Source: Pseudorasbora parva
Taxonomy: Eukaryota; Chordata; Actinopteri; Cypriniformes; Gobionidae
Direction: 5' to 3'
Length of the DNA: 64,000 bases
NCBI RefSeq assembly: GCF_024679245.1
Contig: NC_090191.1
Coordinates: 751,001 to 815,000 of the forward strand
Below, in pieces: positions 91 through 37,688 of this stretch. The translations under genes were made by a program, and so were the position numbers. The first letter of the stretch is position 1. Each line of letters opens with the position of its first letter. The notes below the pieces were generated by a model. It did no database searches. It was not told the DNA's origin and saw nothing but the letters and a program-made list of their open reading frames with translations.

Positions 91-1570
91 TATGCGTTCA
101 ACATGGTAGCCCAATAACCAAAACAACATAACAGGCAATGCCCCTGACACCGCCGAAGTGCTCGCTTAATCAGTAGGCTACGCGCTGAATGCCGCTGAAT
201 GTTCGTGGCAAAATGGCTATTGCGTTTAGCAAACCAGAAATAGAAGATCCTCCAATAACCAACAGGTCTGGTGTGTTGGTGAACTTAGGATTCTCTGTAA
301 GCTATGATGGTGTTGGCAAGAGTGATGGATTAAAAAACAACGGTATGTCGCATTTGCTGATGGTACAGCAGCGGGAATAATTCATGTCATGACAATCAAA
401 GCCGACAACAAGACGATAAAAAGGAGAAACAGCCACAAACTATCCCACAAACTATCCCCGCAGCATTTAGACAGACATTTCCAACTTATTCAAATGGCAA
501 AAGACATCACCGCGGCGAGTGGTCCATTTATAGCCGCGGATATGAGACCTAACGCCCGTTTCACACATACTCCGTCTGCAGTGCGTGTGCGGTGTGTATT
601 TATTCCCGTACCCATGTTAACGGATGACAGCTTTCACACTGCACGCGGATGCGGTCCGTCAGTCCGTTCCAGGAGCGTTGCGTCTGCAGCAGTGCACGGA
701 TCGTTTTCGTACCGAGTCTATTTTTTGCTGCGCTGCGTTGCTGCATTAAAGCGACAGAAGATCGTTGGCATTAAAATAAACATGTACTGACGCGAAAATC
801 TAGTCATTTCACCACAGATGCATCTCATTTAAAATATACTCTTGTTTCAAAGTCAACACATGTTTGTTTTTTTCTCAAGTAAAGCAACAAAACGACACCT
901 TACCTGGCATTTAGGTTAAAAAAATGTGCCATAATGGAGAGCACTCGTACTTTCTTGGAGGTGAAAAGCAAAGTTATTTTTGACCTGCAGGATTTCTTTT
1001 CAAAGGGTGTAAAAACGAAAGAAAAGACGAGAGTCGGCTGTTTTTGAATAGACTATTGTAAGTTTCTAATTTAAAATGTTTGTGATTTAAGGCTATAAAC
1101 TATGTTTAAATGTTTTGCCACTTGTGTGAGCTAAATCTAAAGTATATAAATATGAATAAATGAATTTAATAAAATGTTGTTTAAATGTAGGCTACGTAAC
1201 CTGACTTCTATTAAAGAGTAAACAAAGATAATTGGAATTCTGACGAGGCAGGTTCAGTAAAAACGTTTGGATATTAAATAAAAAATAATGAATAAATGCT
1301 GTGTTTGTGGTGTGGAACAGCGGATCAGTTGCGGACTGCAAACGCAGCATATGTAAAGCACTACAGGGTGTGGGGCTCCTGCAACGCAACACGCACCGCA
1401 CACGCTAATGTAAAGAGCTAATGTCTTATTCCTGTAACTACACAGAAGATGGGTAAAGTATAGCTCCATCATTGTTCAATGTAAAAAAAATACTTTGTTA
1501 GTTTTAATAAAAAAATAATTTAAAAAAAGTTATTTATCTGCCAATTTTTTCTTTTTGCTGTATCTAAAAC
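85..1570. other. Intergenic stretch without a supported gene
   Basis: Short open frames occur here (for example 389-790, plus) but none shows a recognisable domain. Positions 550-720 are rich in CpG and contain GCGTGTGCGGTG-like words that recur in inverted orientation near 1370-1410, which hints at a decayed non-autonomous DNA transposon. No clean terminal inverted repeat or target duplication could be fixed, so no element is called. Confidence 0.5.
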
Positions 1571-2214
1571 ATACCGAACCGTACCGAACCGAACCGTGAC
1601 ACCAGTGTATCGTACCGAACCGAACCGTGACACCAGTGTATCGTACCGAACCGAACCGTGACACCAGTGTATCGTATCGAACCGAACCGTGACACCAGTG
1701 TATCGTACCGAACCGAACCGTGACACCAGTGTATCGTACCGAACCGAACCGTGACACCAGTGTATCGTACCGAACCGAACCGTGACACCAGTGTATCGTA
1801 CCGAACCGAACCGTGACACCAGTGTATCGTATCGAACCGAACCGTGACACCAGTGTATCGTACCGAACCGAACCGTGACACCAGTGTATCGTACCGAACC
1901 GAACCGTGACACCAGTGTATCGTACCGAACCGAACCGTGACACCAGTGTATCGTATCGAACCGAACCGTGACACCAGTGTATCGTACCGAACCGAACCGT
2001 GACACCAGTGTATCGTACCGAACCGAACCGTGACACCAGTGTATCGAACCGAACCGTGACACCAGTGTATCGTACCGAACCGAACCGTGACACCAGTGTA
2101 TCGTACCGAACCGAACCGTGACACCAGTGTATCGTACCGAACCGAACCGTGACACCAGTGTATCGTACCGAACCGAACCGTGACACCAGTGTATCGTATC
2201 GAACCGAACCGTGA
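1571..2214. repeat. 31-bp minisatellite, about 21 copies
   Basis: The unit is 31 bp, read on the plus strand as CGTACCGAACCGAACCGTGA followed by CACCAGTGTAT. Copies are nearly identical; the main variant is CGTATCG for CGTACCG, and one copy near 2041 is short by five bases. Because 31 is not divisible by 3 and the unit has no stop in any minus-strand frame, all three minus frames stay open and give artefactual 186-248 residue ORFs with a 31-residue period. The array lies directly inside a hAT-type terminus, so it looks like an amplified subterminal repeat. Confidence 0.97.
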
Positions 2215-2239
2215 ATTTTGTGAACCGTTACACCCCTAA
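2215..2239 (-). mobile_element. Terminus of a hAT-type DNA transposon
   Basis: On the minus strand this reads TTAGGGGTGTAACGGTTCAC, the TAGGGGTGT-type end shared with the complete MITE at 10976-12052. The adjacent minisatellite consists of GGTTCGGTTCGATACGA-like words resembling the subterminal GATTCGATTCGATTACG of that MITE. The partner terminus was not found on the low-coordinate side. Confidence 0.6.
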
Positions 2240-2725: not shown

Positions 2726-2924
2726 TTTGTTACCTTATTGATCAGTAACGTAGCCAACTCAGTCATATTTGTCCAGCACCTCCATGCTTCTAATCACCAA
2801 AACCTTGGCCTCCTCTGGTGTTCGGTTAAGTTTGATGAATATTTAGCAGTTAGTATTTTGCATTTTTGTTTTGCTTCCTCGGGTACCTGGCTTTTCTGGC
2901 TATTTCCGCATTCCTCTTGGTTAG

Positions 2925-3353
2925 TGTAACGGATTCACAGAGGCAGGATTCAATTGCAAGTAACTAGTTTATTGACAGAAGTGTCACAGAAGCCAAAACT
3001 CAGAACACAGAAGAAGTCCGGATAAGACGGAGCAGTGAGAGAGACTCTGTTGGCGACACGGGCAGGCTGTGAGCAGCAGTGACTCGGGAGCGCGGTTGAG
3101 GTAATCCGGGAAGGGATCCAGCGTTTCACGGAAGGGGGAAACGACAACCAACACGGAGACACAAGGGGAAACATCCAACAACGCTCTGACAAAGACAAGA
3201 GAGAAACAGAGAGACTAAATAGGGTGAAGGTGATGAGTTGCAGCTGGTGCAGGTGATCAGCCACAGGTGCGTGATGAGCCAATCCCAGGCTCCGCCCTCA
3301 CCTACATTCAACACGCACCCAAGAGTGAGACAGGGAATCCATGAACCGTGACA
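2925..3353 (-). repeat. 3' LTR of the chromovirus
   Basis: 429 bp, plus-strand ends TGTAAC and GTGACA. Visual comparison with 6500-6928 shows no differences. It contains a TATA-like box and a polyadenylation signal in element sense. The open frames seen inside it are repeated exactly in the other LTR and are not genes. Confidence 0.96.
2968..2973 (-). terminator. Polyadenylation signal AATAAA in the 3' LTR
   Basis: Element-sense AATAAA lies about 45 bases before the LTR end, the expected place for ending the R region. The equivalent copy in the 5' LTR is at 6543-6548. Confidence 0.7.
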
Positions 3354-3367
3354 GTACCCCTCCCCCT
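3354..3367 (-). promoter_or_regulatory. Polypurine tract for plus-strand DNA priming
   Basis: In element sense this is AGGGGGAGGGGTAC, directly abutting the 3' LTR. It overlaps the pol stop codon at 3366-3368. Both position and composition are those expected of a retroelement polypurine tract. Confidence 0.85.
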
Positions 3368-6300
3368 AGGAGCGTCCCCTGACGCTCCCAGCCGACCTTA
3401 CCTGTTGATTGTAATCATCAATAAGGGAGTGATCCAGAATGTCCCTAGCAGGAACCCAACTTCTCTCCTCCGGACCGTAACCTTCCCAGTCCACCAAGTA
3501 CTGGAAACCGCGTCCCCTCCGTCTAGAATCCAGAATGCGATTAACCGAATAAGTTGGTTCCCCATCTACGAGTCGCGGCGGTGGGGGAACCGGGACTGGC
3601 GGATTAAGGTGGGAGTGAAAAACAGGTTTGATTTTGGATACATGGAAGGCGGGATGAATCCTCCTGTACGCCGGAGGGAGTTTGAGGCGGACTGTCACCG
3701 GACTAATGATCTTGGTGACAGTGAACGGGCCGATAAATTTGGGAGCAAGTTTATTAGATACGGAGCGGAGAGGAATGTTCTTGGTAGAAAGCCACACTTT
3801 TTGACCAACGACGTAAACGGGAGGCTTAGACCGGTGGCGATCGGCTTTAGCCTTGGTGCGCGCTCCCACCTGGAGCAGAGTCTCACGGGCTCTGGTCCAT
3901 GTGCGATGACACCTCTGGATAAAGGCGTGAACAGAGGGGACCGCGACCTCGGAATCCAGACTAGGAAAAATAGGTGGCTGGTAACCTACACTACACTCAA
4001 ATGGCGAAAGGCCCGTAGATGACACTGGTAACGAGTTATGAGCGTACTCAACCATAGAGAGTTGCTGGCTCCAGGATGAAGGATTCTTGGATACCAAACA
4101 TCGCAACACTCTCTCCAGATCCTGATTGGCTCTCTCTGTCTGACCGTTGCTTTGGGGGTGATAACCCGAAGACAGACTAACCGTGGCTCCTAGTAATTTA
4201 CAAAACTCCTGCCAAAATTTGGACACAAATTGGGAACCTCTGTCGGAGACCACGTCCATCGGGAGGCCATGTAACCGAAAGACGTGATCTACTACAGATA
4301 CCGCTGTCTCCTTGGCTGAGGGTAATTTGGGCAAGGGAATGAAATGTGCTGCCTTCGAGAATCGGTCCACGACGGTCAAAACGACCGTCTTGCCCTGGGA
4401 GGGCGGGAGGGCGGTAACAAAATCTAGAGCGATGTGGGACCAGGGTCTCGAAGGAACAGACAGCGGCTGAAGTAACCCCTGGGGAGGTTGGTTAGATGTC
4501 TTACCAACCGCACAGACCGAGCAAGCCAAAACAAAACTGCGAACGTCGCGAGCCATAAGTGGCCACCAAAATCGTTGCTTTATTAAACTGCAAGTGCGGT
4601 TTACCCCTGGATGACAAGCAATGTTGGAGCAGTGACCCCATTTGAGGACCTCGGATCTTAACCCCTCCGGAACGAACAAACAACTCGGTGGGCCGCCGGG
4701 CGGGGGCGTTACCCCTTCTAAGGCCACTTTGACCTTCGATTCGATCTCCCATGTGAGTGTAGAGATAACTATCTTCTCTGGCAAAATACACTCGGGAGTA
4801 ACCGGGCGTTCGGAAGCATCAAAAATACGAGATAAAGAGTCGGGTTTGATGTTTTTAGACCCGGGGCGGTACGAGAGAACAAAGTCAAAACGTCCGAAAA
4901 AAAGTGCCCACCGAGCCTGCCTGGAGTTGAGTCTTTTAGCAGATCTAATATATTCAAGGTTCTTATGATCCGTCCATACAATAAAAGGTACCCCCGACCC
5001 TTCAAGCCAATGACGCCACTCCTCCAACGCTAACTTGACGGCCAACAACTCTCTGTTACCAATGTCATAATTGCGTTCGGCAGGAGAAAGACGATGGGAG
5101 AAAAACGCGCACGGGTGCATCTTGTCATCTGAGGGAGAGCGCTGTGAAAGAACCGCTCCTACCCCCACCTCTGACGCGTCGACCTCTACCACGAACTGAC
5201 GTGTGGGATCAGGGGCGACTAAGATGGGAGCCGAAACAAAGCGGCTTTTCAGTTTGGCGAATACAGCCTCGGCTGTATCGGACCACCTGAACGTCATTCG
5301 GGGAGAGGTCAAGGCAGTCAGAGGTGCGGCTAGTTGGCTGAAATTGCGAATAAAACGCCGATAGAAATTGGCGAACCCCAGAAACCTCTGTAGGGCCTTA
5401 CGGGAATCTGGACTTGGCCAATCCATCACAGCCTTAACCTTGTCGGGATCCATGCGCATTCCCTCCGATGACACGATGTACCCTAAAAAAGGAACAGACT
5501 GTGCATGAAAAGCGCATTTCTCCGCCTTGACAAAAAGCCCATTCTCTAGCAACCTCTGAAGCACTCGTCTGACGTGTCGAACATGTTCCTGGAGAGACGA
5601 AGAAAAAATCAAAATGTCATCCAGGTAGACATATATGAATTGGTCGACCATGTCTCTCAACACATCATTGACGAGTGCCTGGAAAACCGCTGGGGAGTTG
5701 GAAAGGCCAAAAGGCATGACCAAGTATTCAAAATGCCCCCTGGGGGTATTAAATGCGGTTTTCCATTCATCCCCCTCCCTGATGCGAACCAAATGATAAG
5801 CGTTACGTAAGTCCAACTTCGTGAAGACGGATGCTCCCTGTAACCTCTCGAAAGCTGAAGACATCAACGGCAAAGGATAGGTATTCTTTACCGTGATGTT
5901 ATTCAGCCCTCGGTAATCAATGCAAGGTCGCAGAGAACCATCCTTCTTCCCCACGAAGAAGAACCCCGCCCCCGCTGGAGAAGAGGAAGGGCGGATGAAT
6001 TTGGAGGCTAGAGAATCAGAAATATATTTCTCCATGGCCTCCCTCTCTGGAATAGAAAGAGAGTATAGTTTGCCCTTAGGCGGAGACTTACCTGGGAGTA
6101 AATCTATAGCACAGTCATAGGGACGATGCGGAGGGAGAGAAGCAGCTCGGGACTTACTGAACACTTCCTTCAGGTCGAGGTACTCCAGAGGCACGTTAGA
6201 CAGATTCACCGTCTCACTCTGAAAAACAGAACGAGAAACAGACGAACAAGCAGACACCAAACAAGACTCATAACATCTATCACTCCACGCAGACACAGAG

Positions 6301-6482
6301 TTTTGTCCCCAGTCAACCCTTGGATTGTGTAACTCCAGCCAAGGGTGACCGAGGACAACGGGAGCCAAAGGGGAGTCCAGGATGAAAAATGAAATGCGTT
6401 CTGTGTCAGTTAAGTTCGCCTCCTGCTGGTCCAGTCTCTCGTTGCTGCTGGTCAGTAGGGCGTTGATACTCGCTGAATCCAT
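3366..6482 (-). CDS. pol: Chromovirus Pol polyprotein: RT, RNase H, integrase, chromodomain
   Basis: An uninterrupted 1038-residue frame. RT occupies about residues 120-330, with the first metal-binding Asp in LDLRNAYH (D224) and the YLDD box at 286-289. RNase H has D435, E478, D505 and D548. The integrase zinc finger uses H617, H624, C654 and C657; its catalytic triad is D687, D747 and E783 with 35 residues between the last two. A chromodomain follows at about 977-1020 ([18 protein letters not shown]). The first roughly 22 residues resemble a gag start, and residues 28-60 match the segment after the protease active site (VVLGHPWL). There is no D-S/T-G motif and no CCHC zinc knuckle, so gag and the catalytic part of protease have been deleted in frame. 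The start codon lies only 17 bases inside the 5' LTR. RT, RNase H and integrase appear catalytically intact. Confidence 0.96.
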
Positions 6483-6487
6483 GGTTG

Positions 6488-6498
6488 GTCAGAGCGTT
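6488..6498 (-). promoter_or_regulatory. Self-priming primer-binding site
   Basis: Element-sense AACGCTCTGAC lies one base inside the 5' LTR. It does not start with TGG as a tRNA-type primer site would. It is the exact 11-base complement of GTCAGAGCGTT at 6765-6755 in the LTR, the place where the transcript should start. Tf1 is known to prime reverse transcription with the first 11 bases of its own mRNA, and this layout matches. Confidence 0.82.
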
Positions 6499-6754
6499 CT
6501 GTAACGGATTCACAGAGGCAGGATTCAATTGCAAGTAACTAGTTTATTGACAGAAGTGTCACAGAAGCCAAAACTCAGAACACAGAAGAAGTCCGGATAA
6601 GACGGAGCAGTGAGAGAGACTCTGTTGGCGACACGGGCAGGCTGTGAGCAGCAGTGACTCGGGAGCGCGGTTGAGGTAATCCGGGAAGGGATCCAGCGTT
6701 TCACGGAAGGGGGAAACGACAACCAACACGGAGACACAAGGGGAAACATCCAAC

Positions 6755-6765
6755 AACGCTCTGAC
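6755..6765 (-). promoter_or_regulatory. Predicted transcript start and self-primer in the 5' LTR
   Basis: Element-sense GTCAGAGCGTT is complementary over all 11 bases to 6488-6498, with mismatches on both sides. Its first base lies about 31 bases after a TATA-like box, so two independent cues point to this position as the mRNA 5' end. Confidence 0.72.
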
Positions 6766-6790
6766 AAAGACAAGAGAGAAACAGAGAGAC

Positions 6791-6796
6791 TAAATA
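6791..6796 (-). promoter_or_regulatory. TATA-like box of the chromovirus LTR
   Basis: Element-sense TATTTA within CCCTATTTAGTC sits at about -31 to -26 relative to the predicted start at 6765. The identical box occurs in the 3' LTR. Confidence 0.6.
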
Positions 6797-7114
6797 GGGT
6801 GAAGGTGATGAGTTGCAGCTGGTGCAGGTGATCAGCCACAGGTGCGTGATGAGCCAATCCCAGGCTCCGCCCTCACCTACATTCAACACGCACCCAAGAG
6901 TGAGACAGGGAATCCATGAACCGTGACAGTTAGATGATCATTCATGAACACATTAGTGCCCTTCAACTTCCTTCCTTGTTTAAACATTCATTAAATCAAT
7001 GAACACATTTAATAAACGTAACAGTCGGACATTCCTCATACTTTAAAATCTGCAATGATGTGTGTTTCATGGACTCTGATGTCCCGCCGTTCCTGCTGAA
7101 GTTTCCACCGCTGA

Positions 7115-14534: not shown

Positions 14535-14796
14535 CTTTGTAGCTGCTGTCAAATGTAACTCATACATTTCATTTTCAACATGGTTCACAGTTAAAATATA
14601 AATAAATATATATGAGGTTAAAAAATCATATGTTTGAAACAAATAATGTCTCATGGCCAATAAATAATAATTTCATGTTTATTTCGTTCTGTTTAAAAAC
14701 TCTGTGAGAAAAGAGGGGGAACTTATGTGGACGCTGTATGGGTGCGCTCGCTATGATAACAGAGATATATGCTGCGGTTTGGGAGCCTGCTGTCAT

Positions 14797-15068
14797 CAGA
14801 AAGTCATCTGAAGATTATAAAGTTATATACCAGAAAGTCATCTGAAGATTATAAAGTTATATACCAGAAAGTCATCTGAAGATTATAAAGTTATATACCA
14901 GAAAGTCATCTTAAGATTATAAAGTTATATACCAGAAAGTCATCTGAAGATTATAAAGTTATATACCAGAAAGTCATCTGAAGATTATAAAGTTATATAC
15001 CAGAAAGTCATCTGAAGATTATAAAGTTATATACCAGAAAGTCATCTTAAGATTATAAAGTTATATAC
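14797..15068. repeat. 34-bp minisatellite, 8 copies in a 4-unit higher-order repeat
   Basis: The 34-bp unit CAGAAAGTCATCTGAAGATT... is repeated exactly eight times (272 bp). Units 4 and 8 have CTTAAG where the others have CTGAAG, so the array is two copies of a 136-bp four-unit block. Confidence 0.95.
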
Positions 15069-15589
15069 AAGTTTGTCAGTAAAGCGTGAAGATGAAGCAC
15101 ACTTTAAGTTTACCCTCTCGAGTTCATGCGGCCAGTGAGGTATATTTCTCCATACTTGTCATTTATTTGTGTTATGTGACTGTGTTTGTAACAAGCTGAT
15201 TGCGATACTTTACATTGCATAAATGCATCTGTTATTCTTAGTTTTATATACGATTTTGTTTAGTATTGTCTGTAAGTCAAGAATTTAAGGTTAATTTACG
15301 TTTCTGTGTTTTTGTTTATTTGTACCAGTTCTGACGGCAATGCGGAAATGTGGCAATGCGAGAGCATGTTAAGACATGTTTGAAGATTTGTCAGCGAATA
15401 AATGCCCGTTAAAACCCAGGAACGACTTGAGCCTTTATTAAACCTCGAGGGGAGTAACAGCCTTGGTCTGGCCCATCCAAAACTGGAATCCTGCCGCCGT
15501 GCCTGCCATGAACTGACATGAACAAACCATGAACAGCTGTACTTCTGAACTAGCCTAGGTCTAAAATGTGTGTTATTCATCTCCAGCCT
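15069..15589. other. No gene seen
   Basis: No domain-bearing frame, RNA gene or complete mobile element was recognised in this stretch. Confidence 0.5.
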
Positions 15590-19036: not shown

Positions 19037-19666
19037 TCAATTCTTGGTGGGGAATCCTTTAGCAGAAATGACTGCTTCAGTGCGGCGTGGCATGGAGGCG
19101 ATCAGCCTGTGGCACTGCTGAGGTGTTCTGGAGGCGATCAGCCTGTGGCACTGCTGAGGTGTTCTGGAGGCCCAGGATGCTTCGATAGCGGCCTTAAGCT
19201 CATCCAGAGTGTTGGGTCTTGCGTCTCTCAACTTTCTCTTCACAATATCCCACAGATTCTCTATGGGGTTCAGGTCAGGAGAGTTGAGCACAGTAATACC
19301 ATGGTCAGTAAACCATTTACCAGTGGTTTTGGCACTGTGAGCAGGTGCCAGGTCGTGCTGAAAAACCAAATCTTCATCTCCATAAAGCTTTTCAGCAGAT
19401 GGAAGCATGAAGTGCTCCAAAATCTCCTGACAGCGAGCTGCATTGACCCTGCCCTTGATAAAACACAGTGGACCAACACCTCTTCTCGTTGTGCAGCGTT
19501 TTTTGCCACACTTTTTCCTTCCCACAGACTTCCCACTGAGGTGCCTTGATCCAGCACTCTGGTAACAGCCTATTTGTTCAGAAATGTCTTTCTGTGTCTT
19601 CCCCTCTCGCTTGAGGGTGTCAATGATGGCCTTCTGGACAGCAGTCAGGACGGCAGTCTTACCCAT
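19037..19666 (-). pseudogene. Tc1 transposase, internally deleted
   Basis: An open 209-residue frame where about 340 residues are usual. The N-terminal helix-turn-helix starts at residue 1 (MGKTAVLTAVQKAIIDTLKR). After about residue 62 the protein jumps into the catalytic half, losing roughly 130 residues including the first catalytic Asp. The second Asp (D105 in FQHDLAPAH) and the Glu (E136 in DLNPIENLW) remain, but only 30 residues separate them instead of 34, because about four residues before NSPDLNP are gone. A 36-bp tandem duplication (plus strand 19096-19167) repeats 12 residues, SRTPQQCHRLIA. The frame is open but cannot encode an active DD34E enzyme. Confidence 0.88.
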
Positions 19667-20062: not shown

Positions 20063-20583
20063 TCAACACAGTTTCACTGATCCTCCAGAATAATAAACCC
20101 CAAACCCAGGATAGAGCGGCTGAGTAAATGTGGTCTGAATTGTGTGGATGGGCCTCATTGAGTCTCCAGAGACGCTGTAGAAGGACAGAGATCCTGCACT
20201 GGGATCCACATACACTCCTACTCTACTGCCTATGGGCTTTACTGGGAGCTCAGTACTTATGTTATTGTGTTTGAATGAGTAACTGTCACGAGAGCAGAAC
20301 AAACCCCAGGACTGATCATTACCTCCAAACACACACTTATTACCCCCTCTCTTCCTGCAGATGCTCTTATATGACACTGATATAGACACAACTCCACTCC
20401 ACTCAGTCTCCCAGTAACAGCATCCACTCACACTCTCTTCACACAACACCTGACACACATCAAATCTGTCTGGATGACAAAAATATGGCTGGAGTGTGTA
20501 AGTGAATCTAATCTCTCTGTTCCCCTCGGAGAGACGGAGGCGTTTATTCACTGTGTTCATATCCAGAGTGAGCCGAAGCGAAT
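20063..20583 (-). CDS. SNTX-like gene, exon 3: PRY-SPRY (B30.2) domain
   Basis: The last coding exon of the stonustoxin/neoverrucotoxin-like gene. A canonical acceptor (TCTCCATCAG) precedes the first base at 20583. The exon enters in phase 1, matching the phase-1 donor at 26895. It encodes about 173 residues: a PRY segment of the DSLRLTLD type, then SPRY, ending at the stop at 20065-20063. B30.2 domains bind protein or lipid partners and are the usual C-terminus of SNTX subunits and of fish TRIM and NLR proteins. I assign it to the SNTX gene because it is the next downstream exon on the same strand with matching phase. An independent PRY-SPRY gene is the main alternative. A Tc1 element begins 77 bp beyond the stop, and no clear AATAAA was seen in between. 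Confidence 0.85.
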
Positions 20584-33682: not shown

Positions 33683-35131
33683 ATGTCTACTGACACGCCT
33701 GCAGTATGCGTATACTCAGATACTGACGACGATGTCGTTCCGCCTTCTCCTCATCCAACCCGGCGCAGCTCGCGCATTCAGTGCCGCGGCTCGCCATGGG
33801 TAAGCTGGCCTTCGGAGGACATTGTCATAGCCGTGGAGGCTGCCGGTATTCCCATCAGCCGAAGTCTATCTAGAGAGGATCTACTGCACTTGGCCTTTAA
33901 TACTCTGGGCAATCCACCAGAACCTGCTTCTCCCAACCCAGCAACCGCTCCTGCACCGGGCCAGACGAAACAAGTCGGCAGGAAGAGAACCACTAAATCT
34001 TCGTCGCCACACCCAACAAAAAGAGCCACGCACCATCCTCAAGCTTCTACTTCGCTGGATCCAACCGAGCCCGCCGGAGTTAATGCCCAAATCCTTCAAG
34101 TCGTCAAAAGTCTCTCTAAAACCGTTAAGGCACTGGAATCAAAGATGTCGAAATTCGAACATTCCTTCAATAACTCCAACAACTCGGTCTCAGCTACAAA
34201 CGTCTCTGCTAACTCCCAGCTCCCTCAACCAGCCATCGGATCAAGCGACACATCAAACGGGCCTTCTACTTCTGCCCTGCCAACTTTTCTCCCGCCGACA
34301 GAGTCAACATTTCAGGAAGCTTCCCCAACACCCGAAACTTCCTCCTTCAACCTTGCTTCAGCAGTCCCAGCTCAGCCTTTCGGTAGGCGTTTCGTTTCTC
34401 CAGCCGCAGCCACAGTGTCCCCTCTCATTAGAGCGAACATTGTCCAAGGTAAGGACATTAACTTGGCTTCACTTCTGCTTCCCTCACCTGCCATTGACAG
34501 AAAAATGGTAGACTGTGGTGACGTGGCAGTGCTTCTCAAAACTTCCGATCCCAGACTAAACACGAATCTTTCTTTCGGCGAATTCGTCATCGCTTTCAGC
34601 CTTTACAGAGATATACTGTGCCAGGCTTTTCCCGATCGGAGGGAAGAGTTAGATCTGTATCTAGCTTTAATGGCTGACTTTAACCAAAGGTACGGGGGAA
34701 CCTTATTCTACGAATATCATAAATCCTTTTCAGCCAAATCCGCTTCCTTCATCTCGCTCTATAACTCCAGACTAGACTGGTCCGTCACCGACACGGACTT
34801 GCTCGTTCGCCATTTCGGTGGCCAAAAAATGCTGGCATGTTCCATTTGTAGCGCTCACGGACATTCGGCCTCACTCTGCCCGAAAGCATTTGCGAGTCAA
34901 GTGCCAGGTGCTGTCCAGGGTGCTGAAAACGTAAGGTTTCCACAAGAGATCAAGAAACGCTACGCTCCAGCTAGCTATGGTTTTCCTTGTACTAATTTCA
35001 ATGAATCTGTTTGTCCTTTTTCTCAATGCAAATTTGCTCACATCTGCAGCTTTTGCAAGGATCCCCACCCGAAATCGGTCTGCCCTCACCGGTACAAACC
35101 TCCAATCAGAGGGAGGGGGAGGAAATTCTAA
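33683..35131 (+). CDS. gag: Ngaro gag-like protein
   Basis: 482 residues, starting in a good context (GCCATGT). The N-terminal 150 residues are Pro/Ser/Thr-rich and basic (KRTTKSSSPHPTKR). A short possible coiled coil (VVKSLSKTVKALESKMSKFEH) follows, then a low-complexity Ser/Pro/Asn region. The C-terminal half, from about residue 260, is the conserved DIRS/Ngaro gag domain. Three zinc-binding clusters close the protein: a CX2CX4HX4C knuckle (CSICSAHGHSASLC), a CCCH-like FNESVCPFSQCKFAH, and CSFCKDPHPKSVCPH. It presumably packages the element RNA. The RT frame overlaps its last 120 bases in another frame. The whole frame is open. Confidence 0.9.
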   Translation: MSTDTPAVCVYSDTDDDVVPPSPHPTRRSSRIQCRGSPWVSWPSEDIVIAVEAAGIPISRSLSREDLLHLAFNTLGNPPEPASPNPATAPAPGQTKQVGRKRTTKSSSPHPTKRATHHPQASTSLDPTEPAGVNAQILQVVKSLSKTVKALESKMSKFEHSFNNSNNSVSATNVSANSQLPQPAIGSSDTSNGPSTSALPTFLPPTESTFQEASPTPETSSFNLASAVPAQPFGRRFVSPAAATVSPLIRANIVQGKDINLASLLLPSPAIDRKMVDCGDVAVLLKTSDPRLNTNLSFGEFVIAFSLYRDILCQAFPDRREELDLYLALMADFNQRYGGTLFYEYHKSFSAKSASFISLYNSRLDWSVTDTDLLVRHFGGQKMLACSICSAHGHSASLCPKAFASQVPGAVQGAENVRFPQEIKKRYAPASYGFPCTNFNESVCPFSQCKFAHICSFCKDPHPKSVCPHRYKPPIRGRGRKF

Positions 35132-36738
35132 AAAAGCACCCTTCAACCCCCATTAATATTTCTAAACTCTCTAAATATCTCTCTTCTCACCCTGACCCGA
35201 CTTTCGTCGATTACCTTATCACAGGTTTGTCACAGGGGTTTCGGGTGGGTATCCTCTCCCATCTCACCACCTCTTTTATAGCTAAGAACCTACAGTCAGC
35301 TATAAAAGAACCAGAAGTGGTATCTACTCTGCTAGAAAAAGAGGTTAATAAAGGTTATGTAATAGGCCCCTTCGCTTCTCCTCCTTTCTCGACTTTCCGG
35401 ATCAATTCCATCGGCATTGCAACGCGGAAATACTCCGGGAAAAAACGTCTAATTTTCGACATGTCCTCTCCGCATTCTGCCTCCACAGCGAGCGTTAACG
35501 AATGTATACCACTAACACCTTTTTCCCTTCATTATGCTTCAGTAGATAACGCTATACAACTAATCAAGGTCGCTGGCCAAGGAGCTTGGTTGGCTAAAGC
35601 TGATATTACCGATGCTTTTAAAACGATGCCAATACATCCTTCCGACTGGCCACTTTATGGCGTTAAATGGAATTCAAAATTTTATTTCGCAGTACGGCTC
35701 ACCTTCGGCTGCAGAAGTAGCCCCCACATCTTCAACAGCCTCTCCGAAGCATTGTGCTGGATCATGCTGAACGTCTGTAAGCTTCCATTCGTCTTACATT
35801 TACTCGATGATTTTCTGCTGATCGATTTTCCGTCTCAACATTCTTCAATTCTAGACGTCCTCAAACAGATTTTCAGCGACGTCGGCGTTCCCCTCTCCTC
35901 CGAAAAAACCATGGGTCCCTCCACTTCATTAGAATTTCTAGGAATTTCCCTCGACACAGTTTTAATGCAAGCCTCTCTTCCCTCTGAAAAGCTCGCAAGA
36001 ATTAGATCGTTCCTCGAATCTTTCTCATCACTACAAACTGTCTCTAAGCGTGACATGCTTTCGCTGCTCGGCCACCTCAATTTCGCCATGAGCATCATTC
36101 CCCAAGGCAGAGCTTTCATTTCTCGATTACTTACCTCGGCCCATTCAGTAGAAAAACTAAGCGACCAAATTTATCTAGACGAAGGGTGTCTGTCTGACAT
36201 TACATTTTGGAAGCGCTTGTTAAGCGAATGGAACGGTATTTCCTTTTTCTACCACGACATTTTCGAATCGTCCGTCGATTTACATTTATTCACAGACGCT
36301 GCCCCCTCTATCGGGTTCGGTGGTTTCTTCCAAGGAGAATGGTTTGCAGAGAAATGGCCAAACGATTTTCCTAAAACGCTATCCGGTTCAATTTCATCCG
36401 CGCTCTACGAGATTTACCCCATAGCCGTCGCTAGCATGATCTGGGGCCATTCATGGTCTCGCAAACGCATCTTGATGTTCTGCGACAACGAAGCCACAGT
36501 TGCCATCATCAACAAAGGCAGATCGTCTTGCCTTACCATTATGCCTTTAGTGAGACGGTTAATCTGGCAATCAGTTGTTTGTAATTTTATCATCAAAGCT
36601 GAACACATTTCTGGCCACTGTAATATTATTGCTGACGCGCTGTCTCGATTTCGGTTTCAGACTTTCAGACGGATCTGCCCGTTAGCCAAGCCGGACCCAG
36701 TACCCTGCCCTCCCCTAGCAGCAATAATTCTGGATTAA
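35011..36738 (+). CDS. Ngaro reverse transcriptase/RNase H
   Basis: A 575-residue open frame. The first Met lies inside the gag frame; the protein is probably reached by frameshifting or reinitiation near the gag end, with conserved sequence starting around residue 45. RT shows KKRLIFDMSSP, AKADITDAFKTMPIHP with the first catalytic Asp, LTFGCRSSPHIFN and LLDDFLLID with the Asp pair D266 and D267. RNase H shows LFTDAAPSIGFGGFF, ALYEIYPIAV, MFCDNEATVAIIN and GHCNIIADALSRF, giving the expected acidic residues. There are no internal stops, so the enzyme looks intact. The recombinase frame overlaps its last roughly 80-100 bases. Confidence 0.93.
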   Translation: MSFFSMQICSHLQLLQGSPPEIGLPSPVQTSNQREGEEILKKHPSTPINISKLSKYLSSHPDPTFVDYLITGLSQGFRVGILSHLTTSFIAKNLQSAIKEPEVVSTLLEKEVNKGYVIGPFASPPFSTFRINSIGIATRKYSGKKRLIFDMSSPHSASTASVNECIPLTPFSLHYASVDNAIQLIKVAGQGAWLAKADITDAFKTMPIHPSDWPLYGVKWNSKFYFAVRLTFGCRSSPHIFNSLSEALCWIMLNVCKLPFVLHLLDDFLLIDFPSQHSSILDVLKQIFSDVGVPLSSEKTMGPSTSLEFLGISLDTVLMQASLPSEKLARIRSFLESFSSLQTVSKRDMLSLLGHLNFAMSIIPQGRAFISRLLTSAHSVEKLSDQIYLDEGCLSDITFWKRLLSEWNGISFFYHDIFESSVDLHLFTDAAPSIGFGGFFQGEWFAEKWPNDFPKTLSGSISSALYEIYPIAVASMIWGHSWSRKRILMFCDNEATVAIINKGRSSCLTIMPLVRRLIWQSVVCNFIIKAEHISGHCNIIADALSRFRFQTFRRICPLAKPDPVPCPPLAAIILD

Positions 36739-36767
36739 ACGATCTGCTCAAATCGGCTAGGAGATAT

Positions 36768-37688
36768 ATGTCTAAAGGAGTCGCCCCCTCAACTTTCAAA
36801 GCTTACACGTCCGCATGGTCAGCTTTTTCTATGTTCTGTTTAGCCTTCCAAATCCCAGTATTTCCCATTTTAATTTCGACCGTTTGTTCCTTTCTCGTTT
36901 TCAATTTCGAAAATAGAAACCAAAAAATATCTTCCATCCGCCGACTCCTCGCAGGCATTCAATTCTATGCAAAAATAAATAATCCTAATTTTACAAGTCT
37001 CTTCTCCGAAACCTCCATTCGTTTACTCCTTAAAGGCTTAGCTAAATCCTCTATTAAACCGATCGATAAACGTCTGCCCATTACTCTGCCGTTGTTGCAT
37101 AAATTCATCAATTCCGTCCGCAACGGTCTCTTTTCCTTTTACATCAATATCTTGCTAGAAGCAGTGTTTCTAGCTGCTTTTTACGGCTTCATGCGTCCAG
37201 GCGAATTCTCTTCAGATACCAATACTTTCAATCCTTCTCGCGGTATTTCCTTTTCTTATATTCATTTCTCTCCTAATTGCTTCACTCTAATTCTTAAGCA
37301 TTCAAAAACCGACGCCCAAAGCTCCGGCGTCACCTTATCTTTCCCTAAAATCAATAACAAATTTTGCCCATTTACATCCATGGTTAAATTTCTTAAAATC
37401 CGCCCTAAAACTTCTAACGTTACCCCTCTCTTTATCTTACCTAACGGTGCACCTCTTTCAAAAGGCTGGTTCAGAACCCATTTAAACTCTGTCGTTAAAA
37501 GCTGCAGTCTATCCCCCTCTCTCTACACCGGCCACTCATTCAGAATTGGGGCAGCTACCACAGCAGCTGAACGAGGAATCCCCACGTCAGCCATCAAGAT
37601 TCTGGGTAGGTGATCTTCCTCGGCCTTCGAATCATACATAAGACCAGATTCTAACACCATTCTTCAAGCTCAGCAAGCTCTACAGTAA
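36768..37688 (+). pseudogene. Ngaro tyrosine recombinase with a premature stop before the catalytic Tyr
   Basis: The element's integration enzyme, acting through a Tyr-DNA intermediate instead of a DDE integrase. The frame is open upstream of the Met at 36768 and overlaps the RT end, so the true start may be earlier. A SAM-like N-terminal domain starts at VAPSTFKAYTSAWSAF. The catalytic domain has the first Arg in FYGFMRPGEF and the HxxR pair in GHSFRIGAAT. After ILGR there is TGA at 37611-37613 where relatives normally have Trp (TGG). Reading on in the same frame gives SSSAFESYIRPD, with the catalytic Tyr at 37635-37637, and the next stop, TAA, at 37686-37688. A single base change therefore separates this copy from a full-length enzyme. 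Confidence 0.88.

What the first reader, a model, noticed from the sequence alone, without database searches (positions are those of the whole stretch)
6488..6796. Self-priming signature, TATA box and transcript start agree in a chromovirus
There is no TGG-type tRNA primer site after the 5' LTR. Instead the 11 bases AACGCTCTGAC (6498-6488, element sense) are the exact complement of GTCAGAGCGTT within the LTR (6765-6755), with mismatches immediately on both sides. A TATA-like box lies about 31 bases before 6765, which independently places the mRNA start at the first base of the complementary stretch. Tf1 is known to prime with the first 11 bases of its own transcript, so length and position both match that mechanism.
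Basis: partly seen in the sequence, partly recalled or inferred. Interest (0 to 1): 0.8.

Follow-up and report, generated by a model that had tools for sequence, protein, structure and literature searches.

The report
Fish retrotransposon with self-primed reverse transcription
A young jumping gene in a carp-like fish genome appears to start copying itself with the first 11 letters of its own RNA rather than a borrowed tRNA, a trick already known for its group, and related families in the same genome keep the two matching segments matched even as both change.

Summary
On the minus strand lies a 4,004-bp Ty3/gypsy chromovirus (LTRs 2925-3353 and 6500-6928, identical). No TGG follows the LTR; one base after it, AACGCTCTGAC (6498-6488) is the exact complement of GTCAGAGCGTT (6765-6755), which starts 31 nt after TATTTAG. 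A strict detector finds this arrangement once in the window, both strands. The finding's own refutation test was run on the host genome and passed: 93 of 97 copies read, the window's included, keep their family's pair. Exceptions: two single substitutions, one assembly gap, one copy without a recognisable 5' end. Across 13 families or subfamilies the segments change together (7 of 11 pairs changed on both sides), and 12 of 13 pairs are recovered from position alone. The mechanism is already published for the Tf1/sushi group, vertebrates included, so this is a new member of a known kind. Details: 4 of 13 families pair at only 10 of 11 positions; the two flanking 'pretzel' duplexes of Tf1 were not detectable; folding gave no support; the window copy has lost most of gag and part of protease. 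Transcript starts and priming were not measured.

The parts
6500..6928 (-). 5' LTR (element sense), TGTCAC...GTTACA, 429 bp
   Evidence: identical direct repeat of 2925-3353
2925..3353 (-). 3' LTR, identical to the 5' LTR
6929..6933 (.). target-site duplication GTTAG, 5' side of the element
   Evidence: read output; matches 2920-2924
2920..2924 (.). target-site duplication GTTAG, 3' side of the element
6790..6796 (-). TATA-like box TATTTAG, starting 31 nt before the self-primer
   Evidence: a TATA-like word starts at -28 to -31 in the 11 families (weak in I and J), none at that place in family K
6755..6765 (-). self-primer GTCAGAGCGTT; predicted first 11 nt of the mRNA (start at 6765, T|G junction)
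   Evidence: exact complement of the PBS; covariation in related families
6543..6548 (-). AATAAA poly(A) signal near the LTR end, consistent with a long R and a short U5
6499..6499 (-). 1-nt spacer (G) between LTR end and PBS
   Evidence: if the LTR ends at ACA, the spacer is 1 nt in all 11 families
6488..6498 (-). primer binding site AACGCTCTGAC
3366..6482 (-). 1038-aa ORF: first ~24 residues of gag joined to the end of protease, then RT, RNase H, integrase, chromodomain
6400..6409 (-). junction of an internal deletion (1,133 nt against 15 sister copies, 1,130 against one) that removed most of gag and part of PR
3357..3366 (-). probable polypurine tract GGGGGAGGGG, 3 nt before the 3' LTR
   Evidence: sequence; inference

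Best explanation
This is a young, internally deleted copy of a high-copy Tf1/sushi-like chromovirus. Its genomic RNA starts at 6765, and its first 10-11 nt pair with the PBS just after the 5' LTR. The element's RNase H then nicks the RNA at the end of that duplex, and the freed 3' end primes minus-strand DNA synthesis. Shown here: the paired segments, their position relative to LTR end, TATA-like word, initiator-type T|G and gag ATG, and their coevolution across families. Inferred: the RNA start, the RNase H nick and the priming itself, by analogy with Tf1.
For: Exact 11-bp complement at the right place; single strict hit in 64 kb on both strands. Retention in 39 of 40 close copies (all 40 hits, the window itself among them) and in 11 of 11 copies read of a second subfamily whose LTRs are 96-97% identical. 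In 37 further loci the motif sits at the LTR/gag junction in 35, with no strict hit elsewhere in their upstream 3.5 kb and 2 on the other strand in 155 kb. Own-family complement is 10-11 nt in 11 of 11 families, at most 9 in 110 cross-family pairs, and 10 or more in 6 of 3,300 random internal 11-mers. Covariation score 0.597 against 0.195 for shuffled rows (0 of 500 as high) and at most 0.091 for slid partners. Placement without complementarity recovers 12 of 13. Three loci fetched after the scan was written all carry a pair just before gag, two being new families. Four distant chromovirus contigs from other assemblies share the layout, with TATA at -31 to -33. RT, RNase H, integrase and chromodomain are recognised in the ORF.
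Against: No transcript start or priming product was measured. RNA folding gives no support: pair probabilities in the window are up to 0.82 with a 300-nt leader but mean 0.00 with a longer one, and B2 is near 0; B1 (0.69) and the distant contigs (0.94-0.96) pair well, but about as well with a shuffled interior. The two flanking duplexes of the Tf1 'pretzel' are not seen: own-family complement no better than cross-family (5.18 vs 5.13 and 4.55 vs 4.46). Two of the five covariation measures do not exceed shuffles clearly (pairs with changes on both sides 38 of 500, further pair types 290 of 500). Family K has no TATA-like word at the expected place. Contig L001 pairs at only 7 of 11 (by eye), and of 17 distant contigs only four show the full layout.
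Confidence: 0.9

Rival explanations
1. The two segments form a structural or regulatory duplex in the leader (dimerisation, packaging or translation control) and a host tRNA primes at an unusual site.
For: The gag ATG lies 4-6 nt after the PBS in 11 of 11 families checked, so the duplex could also influence translation.
Against: The 3' member sits right after the LTR end, where a primer must bind, and no TGG is present in the 9 nt checked there in 11 of 11 families. The 5' member sits at the predicted RNA 5' end. The group is described as self-priming. Internal or half-tRNA priming was not tested.
Confidence: 0.06
2. Chance complementarity in a copy whose real primer site was lost.
For: An 11-mer match alone arises in about 1.5 to 4 per 10,000 trials.
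Against: Covariation across 13 families, retention in 93 of 97 copies, and recovery by position alone in 12 of 13.
Confidence: 0.01
3. Self-priming was ancestral and the segments are maintained, but this copy is dead or moved only with proteins made by other copies.
For: The window copy has lost most of gag and part of PR.
Against: Its LTRs are identical and it has clean 5-bp TSDs, so it was reverse-transcribed recently; copies of the second subfamily keep 1,418-aa open frames. This bears on the copy, not on the priming mode.
Confidence: 0.03

Closest known systems
Tf1 of Schizosaccharomyces pombe (founder of the Tf1/sushi group)
   Same: Chromovirus; PBS downstream of the 5' LTR pairing with a self-primer at the mRNA 5' end (PMC10085805 and PMC4600332, passages read; the number 11 for Tf1 is from the finding and recall).
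   Different: Different sequence and host; here 10 of 11 pairs in some families; the two flanking duplexes required in Tf1 were not detected.
Vertebrate Tf1/sushi elements (sushi-ichi and kin; Butler et al. 2001, cited in PMC10085805, PMC6317226 and PMC4600332; the paper itself was not looked up or read)
   Same: Vertebrate chromoviruses reported to self-prime, with the leader structure Butler called the 'pretzel'.
   Different: Here the pairing is supported by covariation over 13 families or subfamilies of one genome; I could not compare with Butler's own sequences.
Tj1 of S. japonicus (PMC4600332, passages)
   Same: PBS complementary to the 5' end of its mRNA; self-priming proposed.
   Different: Yeast; shown active in a transposition assay, which was not done for the present family.
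Tcn1-type chromoviruses of mosses and club mosses (PMC6317226; PMC2864245, passages)
   Same: Tf1/sushi kin for which self-priming is predicted in most elements (PMC6317226).
   Different: In SM-Tcn1 neither a tRNA site nor a self-primer was found (PMC2864245), so the trait is not universal among kin.
Sushi LTR model of PMC3601003 (passages and section 12 read)
   Same: AT-rich stretch that could be a TATA promoter and AATAAA unusually close to the LTR 3' end, from a set dominated by Danio rerio.
   Different: That section does not treat priming.

Membership tests
Tf1/sushi group of chromoviruses | Ty3/gypsy pol order RT-RNase H-integrase | tested here: met
   Pfam RVT_1, RT_RNaseH, Integrase_H2C2, rve in order
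Tf1/sushi group of chromoviruses | chromodomain at the integrase C-terminus | tested here: met
   PF00385 at residues 978-1026, 46.8 bits
Tf1/sushi group of chromoviruses | PBS complementary to the 5' end of the element's own RNA | tested here: met
   DNA level only; the RNA 5' end is predicted, not mapped
Tf1/sushi group of chromoviruses | three-duplex 'pretzel' in the 5' leader | tested here: inconclusive
   central duplex supported; flanking duplexes no better than cross-family chance by longest exact complement, a simple test without bulges
Tf1/sushi group of chromoviruses | RT phylogeny with named Tf1, Tf2 and sushi-ichi | not tested
   no named reference sequence was in hand; the tree shows a fish clade and a clade of self-priming contigs whose mutual place is unresolved
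Tf1/sushi group of chromoviruses | RNase H nick that frees the self-primer | not testable with these tools
   needs biochemistry
tRNA-primed Ty3/gypsy elements | TGG-type PBS next to the 5' LTR | tested here: not met
   no TGG in the 9 nt checked in 11 of 11 families

The most novel reading that the evidence does not exclude
In fish chromoviruses the single 10-11 bp duplex is enough, without Tf1's two flanking duplexes. Because its PBS arm ends 4-6 nt before the gag ATG, forming it ties the RNA's capped end to the start codon and so switches an RNA from translation to reverse transcription.
Probability: 0.15. Interest if true: 0.65.

Novelty: new member of a known kind. Interest (0 to 1): 0.35.

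Why it matters
In the passages I could read, self-priming of vertebrate elements is cited as a prediction from sequence. Here one genome supplies 13 natural variants of the primer/PBS pair, with compensatory changes at 7 of 11 positions and young high-copy families. That makes the mechanism testable by 5' end mapping alone, and it maps where the pairing is free to vary and where it is not.

Tried and rejected
Led nowhere: viral-contig scans with the window protein, a 14-protein alignment and a distant relative gave no confirmed relative. Rfam (gathering threshold) and tRNA scans of the window were empty. RNA folding was not decisive: the window result flips with leader length and the leaders pair about as well with a shuffled interior. 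Flanking 'pretzel' duplexes were not supported. A literature search for self-priming together with zebrafish and LTR retrotransposon found no paper.

Considered and dropped: a universal 11-nt length (B1, B2, E and J pair at 10; D has a G-U at the 11th). An invariant GYCAG start was suggested by the first 11 families and broken by K and L. L013/L015 as self-primers: only 9 nt, 44 nt after TATA.

Limits of the tests: the rows of alignments A2 and A3 were found by complementarity, so their percentage paired is high by construction; answer that only partly. The TATA word list was written after seeing the families. Of the three later loci, L114 belongs to family H already seen, and L112 would fail the strict detector for want of a TATA-like word. 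One search listed 41 places; 37 were fetched and the other four are family B places read before. One search listed 33 places: 6 of family B (all fetched) and 27 of family A, of which 11 were fetched. From (32 places) two new regions and (66 rows) one new region were fetched; the rest looked by place, frame length or identity like families already read. L074 shows no motif in the 2.8 kb fetched upstream of its match, which itself starts at residue 284; its LTR was not sought separately. The tree holds ten of the thirteen (not B2, K, L).

Full report
What is there. The window is part of a 1.23-Gb genome in 79 contigs; the best-scoring named proteins are from cyprinid-type fishes such as Pimephales and Cyprinus, so the host is probably a cyprinid. 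On the minus strand, 6928 to 2925, lies an LTR retrotransposon of 4,004 bp. The LTRs are identical over 429 bp and flanked by the 5-bp duplication GTTAG.

The claimed signature. The element reads ...GTTACA-G-AACGCTCTGAC-CAACCATGG: LTR end, 1-nt spacer, 11-nt PBS, then the gag start codon 5 nt on. The PBS is the exact complement of GTCAGAGCGTT at 6765-6755, and the match stops on both sides. TATTTAG begins 31 nt before 6765 and AATAAA lies near the LTR end, as expected for a long R that starts at 6765; PMC3601003 (section 12) describes the same two traits for its sushi LTR model. A chance 11-nt match would occur in 3 of 20,000 simulated LTRs, or 8 of 18,745 random 13-mers. A detector that also requires the LTR-end spacing and the TATA distance finds only this site in 64 kb on both strands.

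All 40 places found by DNA search (842 candidates, 40 scored; the window itself is one) were read: 39 of 40 have both 11-mers unchanged, and L060 differs at the first base of the self-primer. Eleven copies of a second subfamily, whose LTRs are 96-97% identical to the window's, all keep both segments. These copies are too similar to show covariation.

Other families in the same genome. Searches with related polyproteins led to further families. Five of six family B places carry the pair; the sixth, L074, shows none in the stretch fetched. Of 37 loci, 35 carry it; L083 has an assembly gap over the LTR and L098 one substitution in the PBS. Three loci fetched after the scan was written all carry a pair just before gag, two of them as new families K and L. 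In total 93 of 97 copies read have their family's intact pair (39 of 40, 11 of 11, 5 of 6, 35 of 37, 3 of 3).

Covariation. The thirteen pairs differ: for example B1 has GTCAGTTGAT with ATCAACTGAC, and its near relative B2 has GTCAGTAGAT with ATCTACTGAC. Seven of 11 pairs show changes on both sides, four never vary, and 97.2% of 143 cells pair; the covariation score is 0.597 against 0.195 for shuffled rows, 0 of 500 as high, and at most 0.091 for slid partners. Of the five measures, three exceed every shuffle; the number of pairs with changes on both sides is reached by 38 of 500 shuffles and the number of pair types by 290 of 500. The first 11 families alone gave 0.529 against 0.161. Each PBS finds a 10-11-nt complement in its own LTR and at most 9 nt in other families' LTRs (110 pairs); random internal 11-mers reach 10 or more in 6 of 3,300. 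On a tree of ten families the T-A/C-G state of position 2 needs at least three changes along well-supported branches, each compensated.

A test that does not use complementarity. Taking the 11 nt that follow the LTR-end ACA plus one base before the gag ATG, and the 11 nt lying 28-31 nt after a TATA-like word, gives 10-11 paired bases (G-U allowed) in 12 of 13 families as the best of 4-16 candidates; in the window the right site scores 11 and the other three candidates 3-4. Family K fails because no TATA-like word lies there. The word list was made after seeing the families.

Where the RNA starts. In 11 of 11 families the base before the self-primer is T and its first base is G, an initiator-like pyrimidine-purine step, and the base after the PBS is C, so the duplex ends at the predicted start. 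A TATA-like word starts at -28 to -31 in the 11, weak in I and J; in J a word at -50 scores slightly higher. This is sequence evidence only.

What differs from Tf1. PMC10085805 (passages) says self-priming of Tf1 needs a three-duplex 'pretzel' and that self-priming is a common feature of the Tf1/sushi group. I found no sign of the two flanking duplexes: longest complements were the same within and between families, by a test that allows no bulges. Folding of the leader was undecided: for the window, pair probabilities up to 0.82 with one leader length and mean 0.00 with another, below the 0.34 of its shuffled-interior control; the other seven leaders folded gave values close to those controls. 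One pair of 11 is lost in B1, B2, E and J, and D's 11th pair is G-U.

Wider relatives. A scan of prokaryote assemblies found 17 chromovirus contigs, presumably eukaryotic contaminants. Four (L003, L004, L008, L010) have an 11-12-nt self-primer with TATA at -31 to -33 and, if their LTR ends at TGACA, a PBS 2 nt after it. L001 matches at 7 of 11 (by eye). L013 and L015 have a 9-nt match 44 nt after TATA. The other ten show no such site with a TATA-like word at the right distance; L002, L006 and L016 hold little 5' sequence.

The copy itself. Against 16 sister copies the window copy lacks 1,133 nt (1,130 against L031) between the start of gag and the end of protease, close to a CACAG word present on both sides (by eye); of the 24 loci L018-L041 only the window has this join (the other 16 close copies were not checked for it). 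The join leaves one open frame. Identical LTRs date the insertion as recent, so the deletion arose during or shortly before its last copying, or the copy moved with proteins made by others.

Verdict. The listings of my six library searches name no covariation test in fish elements, but I read passages of only five of the listed papers and most journals are outside that library.

Noticed in passing
L003:1-120, L004:1-80, L008:60-145, L001:150-230: Between TATA and the predicted start lies a second copy of part of the PBS sequence, so the promoter region holds an inverted repeat of the self-primer (partial in L001; not transcribed if the start is right). Not seen in the window element. By eye.
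   Followed up: no
L013:69-200, L015: A chromovirus with 181-bp LTRs has a 9-nt complement between the PBS position and the LTR 44 nt after TATA; possibly a self-primer that is not at the very 5' end.
   Followed up: partly
window 6480-6409: The deletion puts the gag start codon in frame with pol; its net length against most sister copies, 1,133 nt, is not a multiple of three, so gag and pol of those copies would be in different frames, whereas the second subfamily has a single 1,418-aa frame.
   Followed up: partly
window 1560-2215: 31-bp minisatellite of about 20 copies.
   Followed up: no
window 14763-15136: 34-bp tandem repeat of about 8 copies.
   Followed up: no
window 33683-37613 (+): Three consecutive ORFs; the second has a reverse transcriptase domain, the other two no Pfam match; the third looks like a tyrosine recombinase by eye; perhaps a DIRS/Ngaro-like element (recalled, not tested).
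   Followed up: partly
window 20063-20560 (-) and 19037-19666 (-): PRY/SPRY domain exon, and a DDE_3 transposase fragment.
   Followed up: partly
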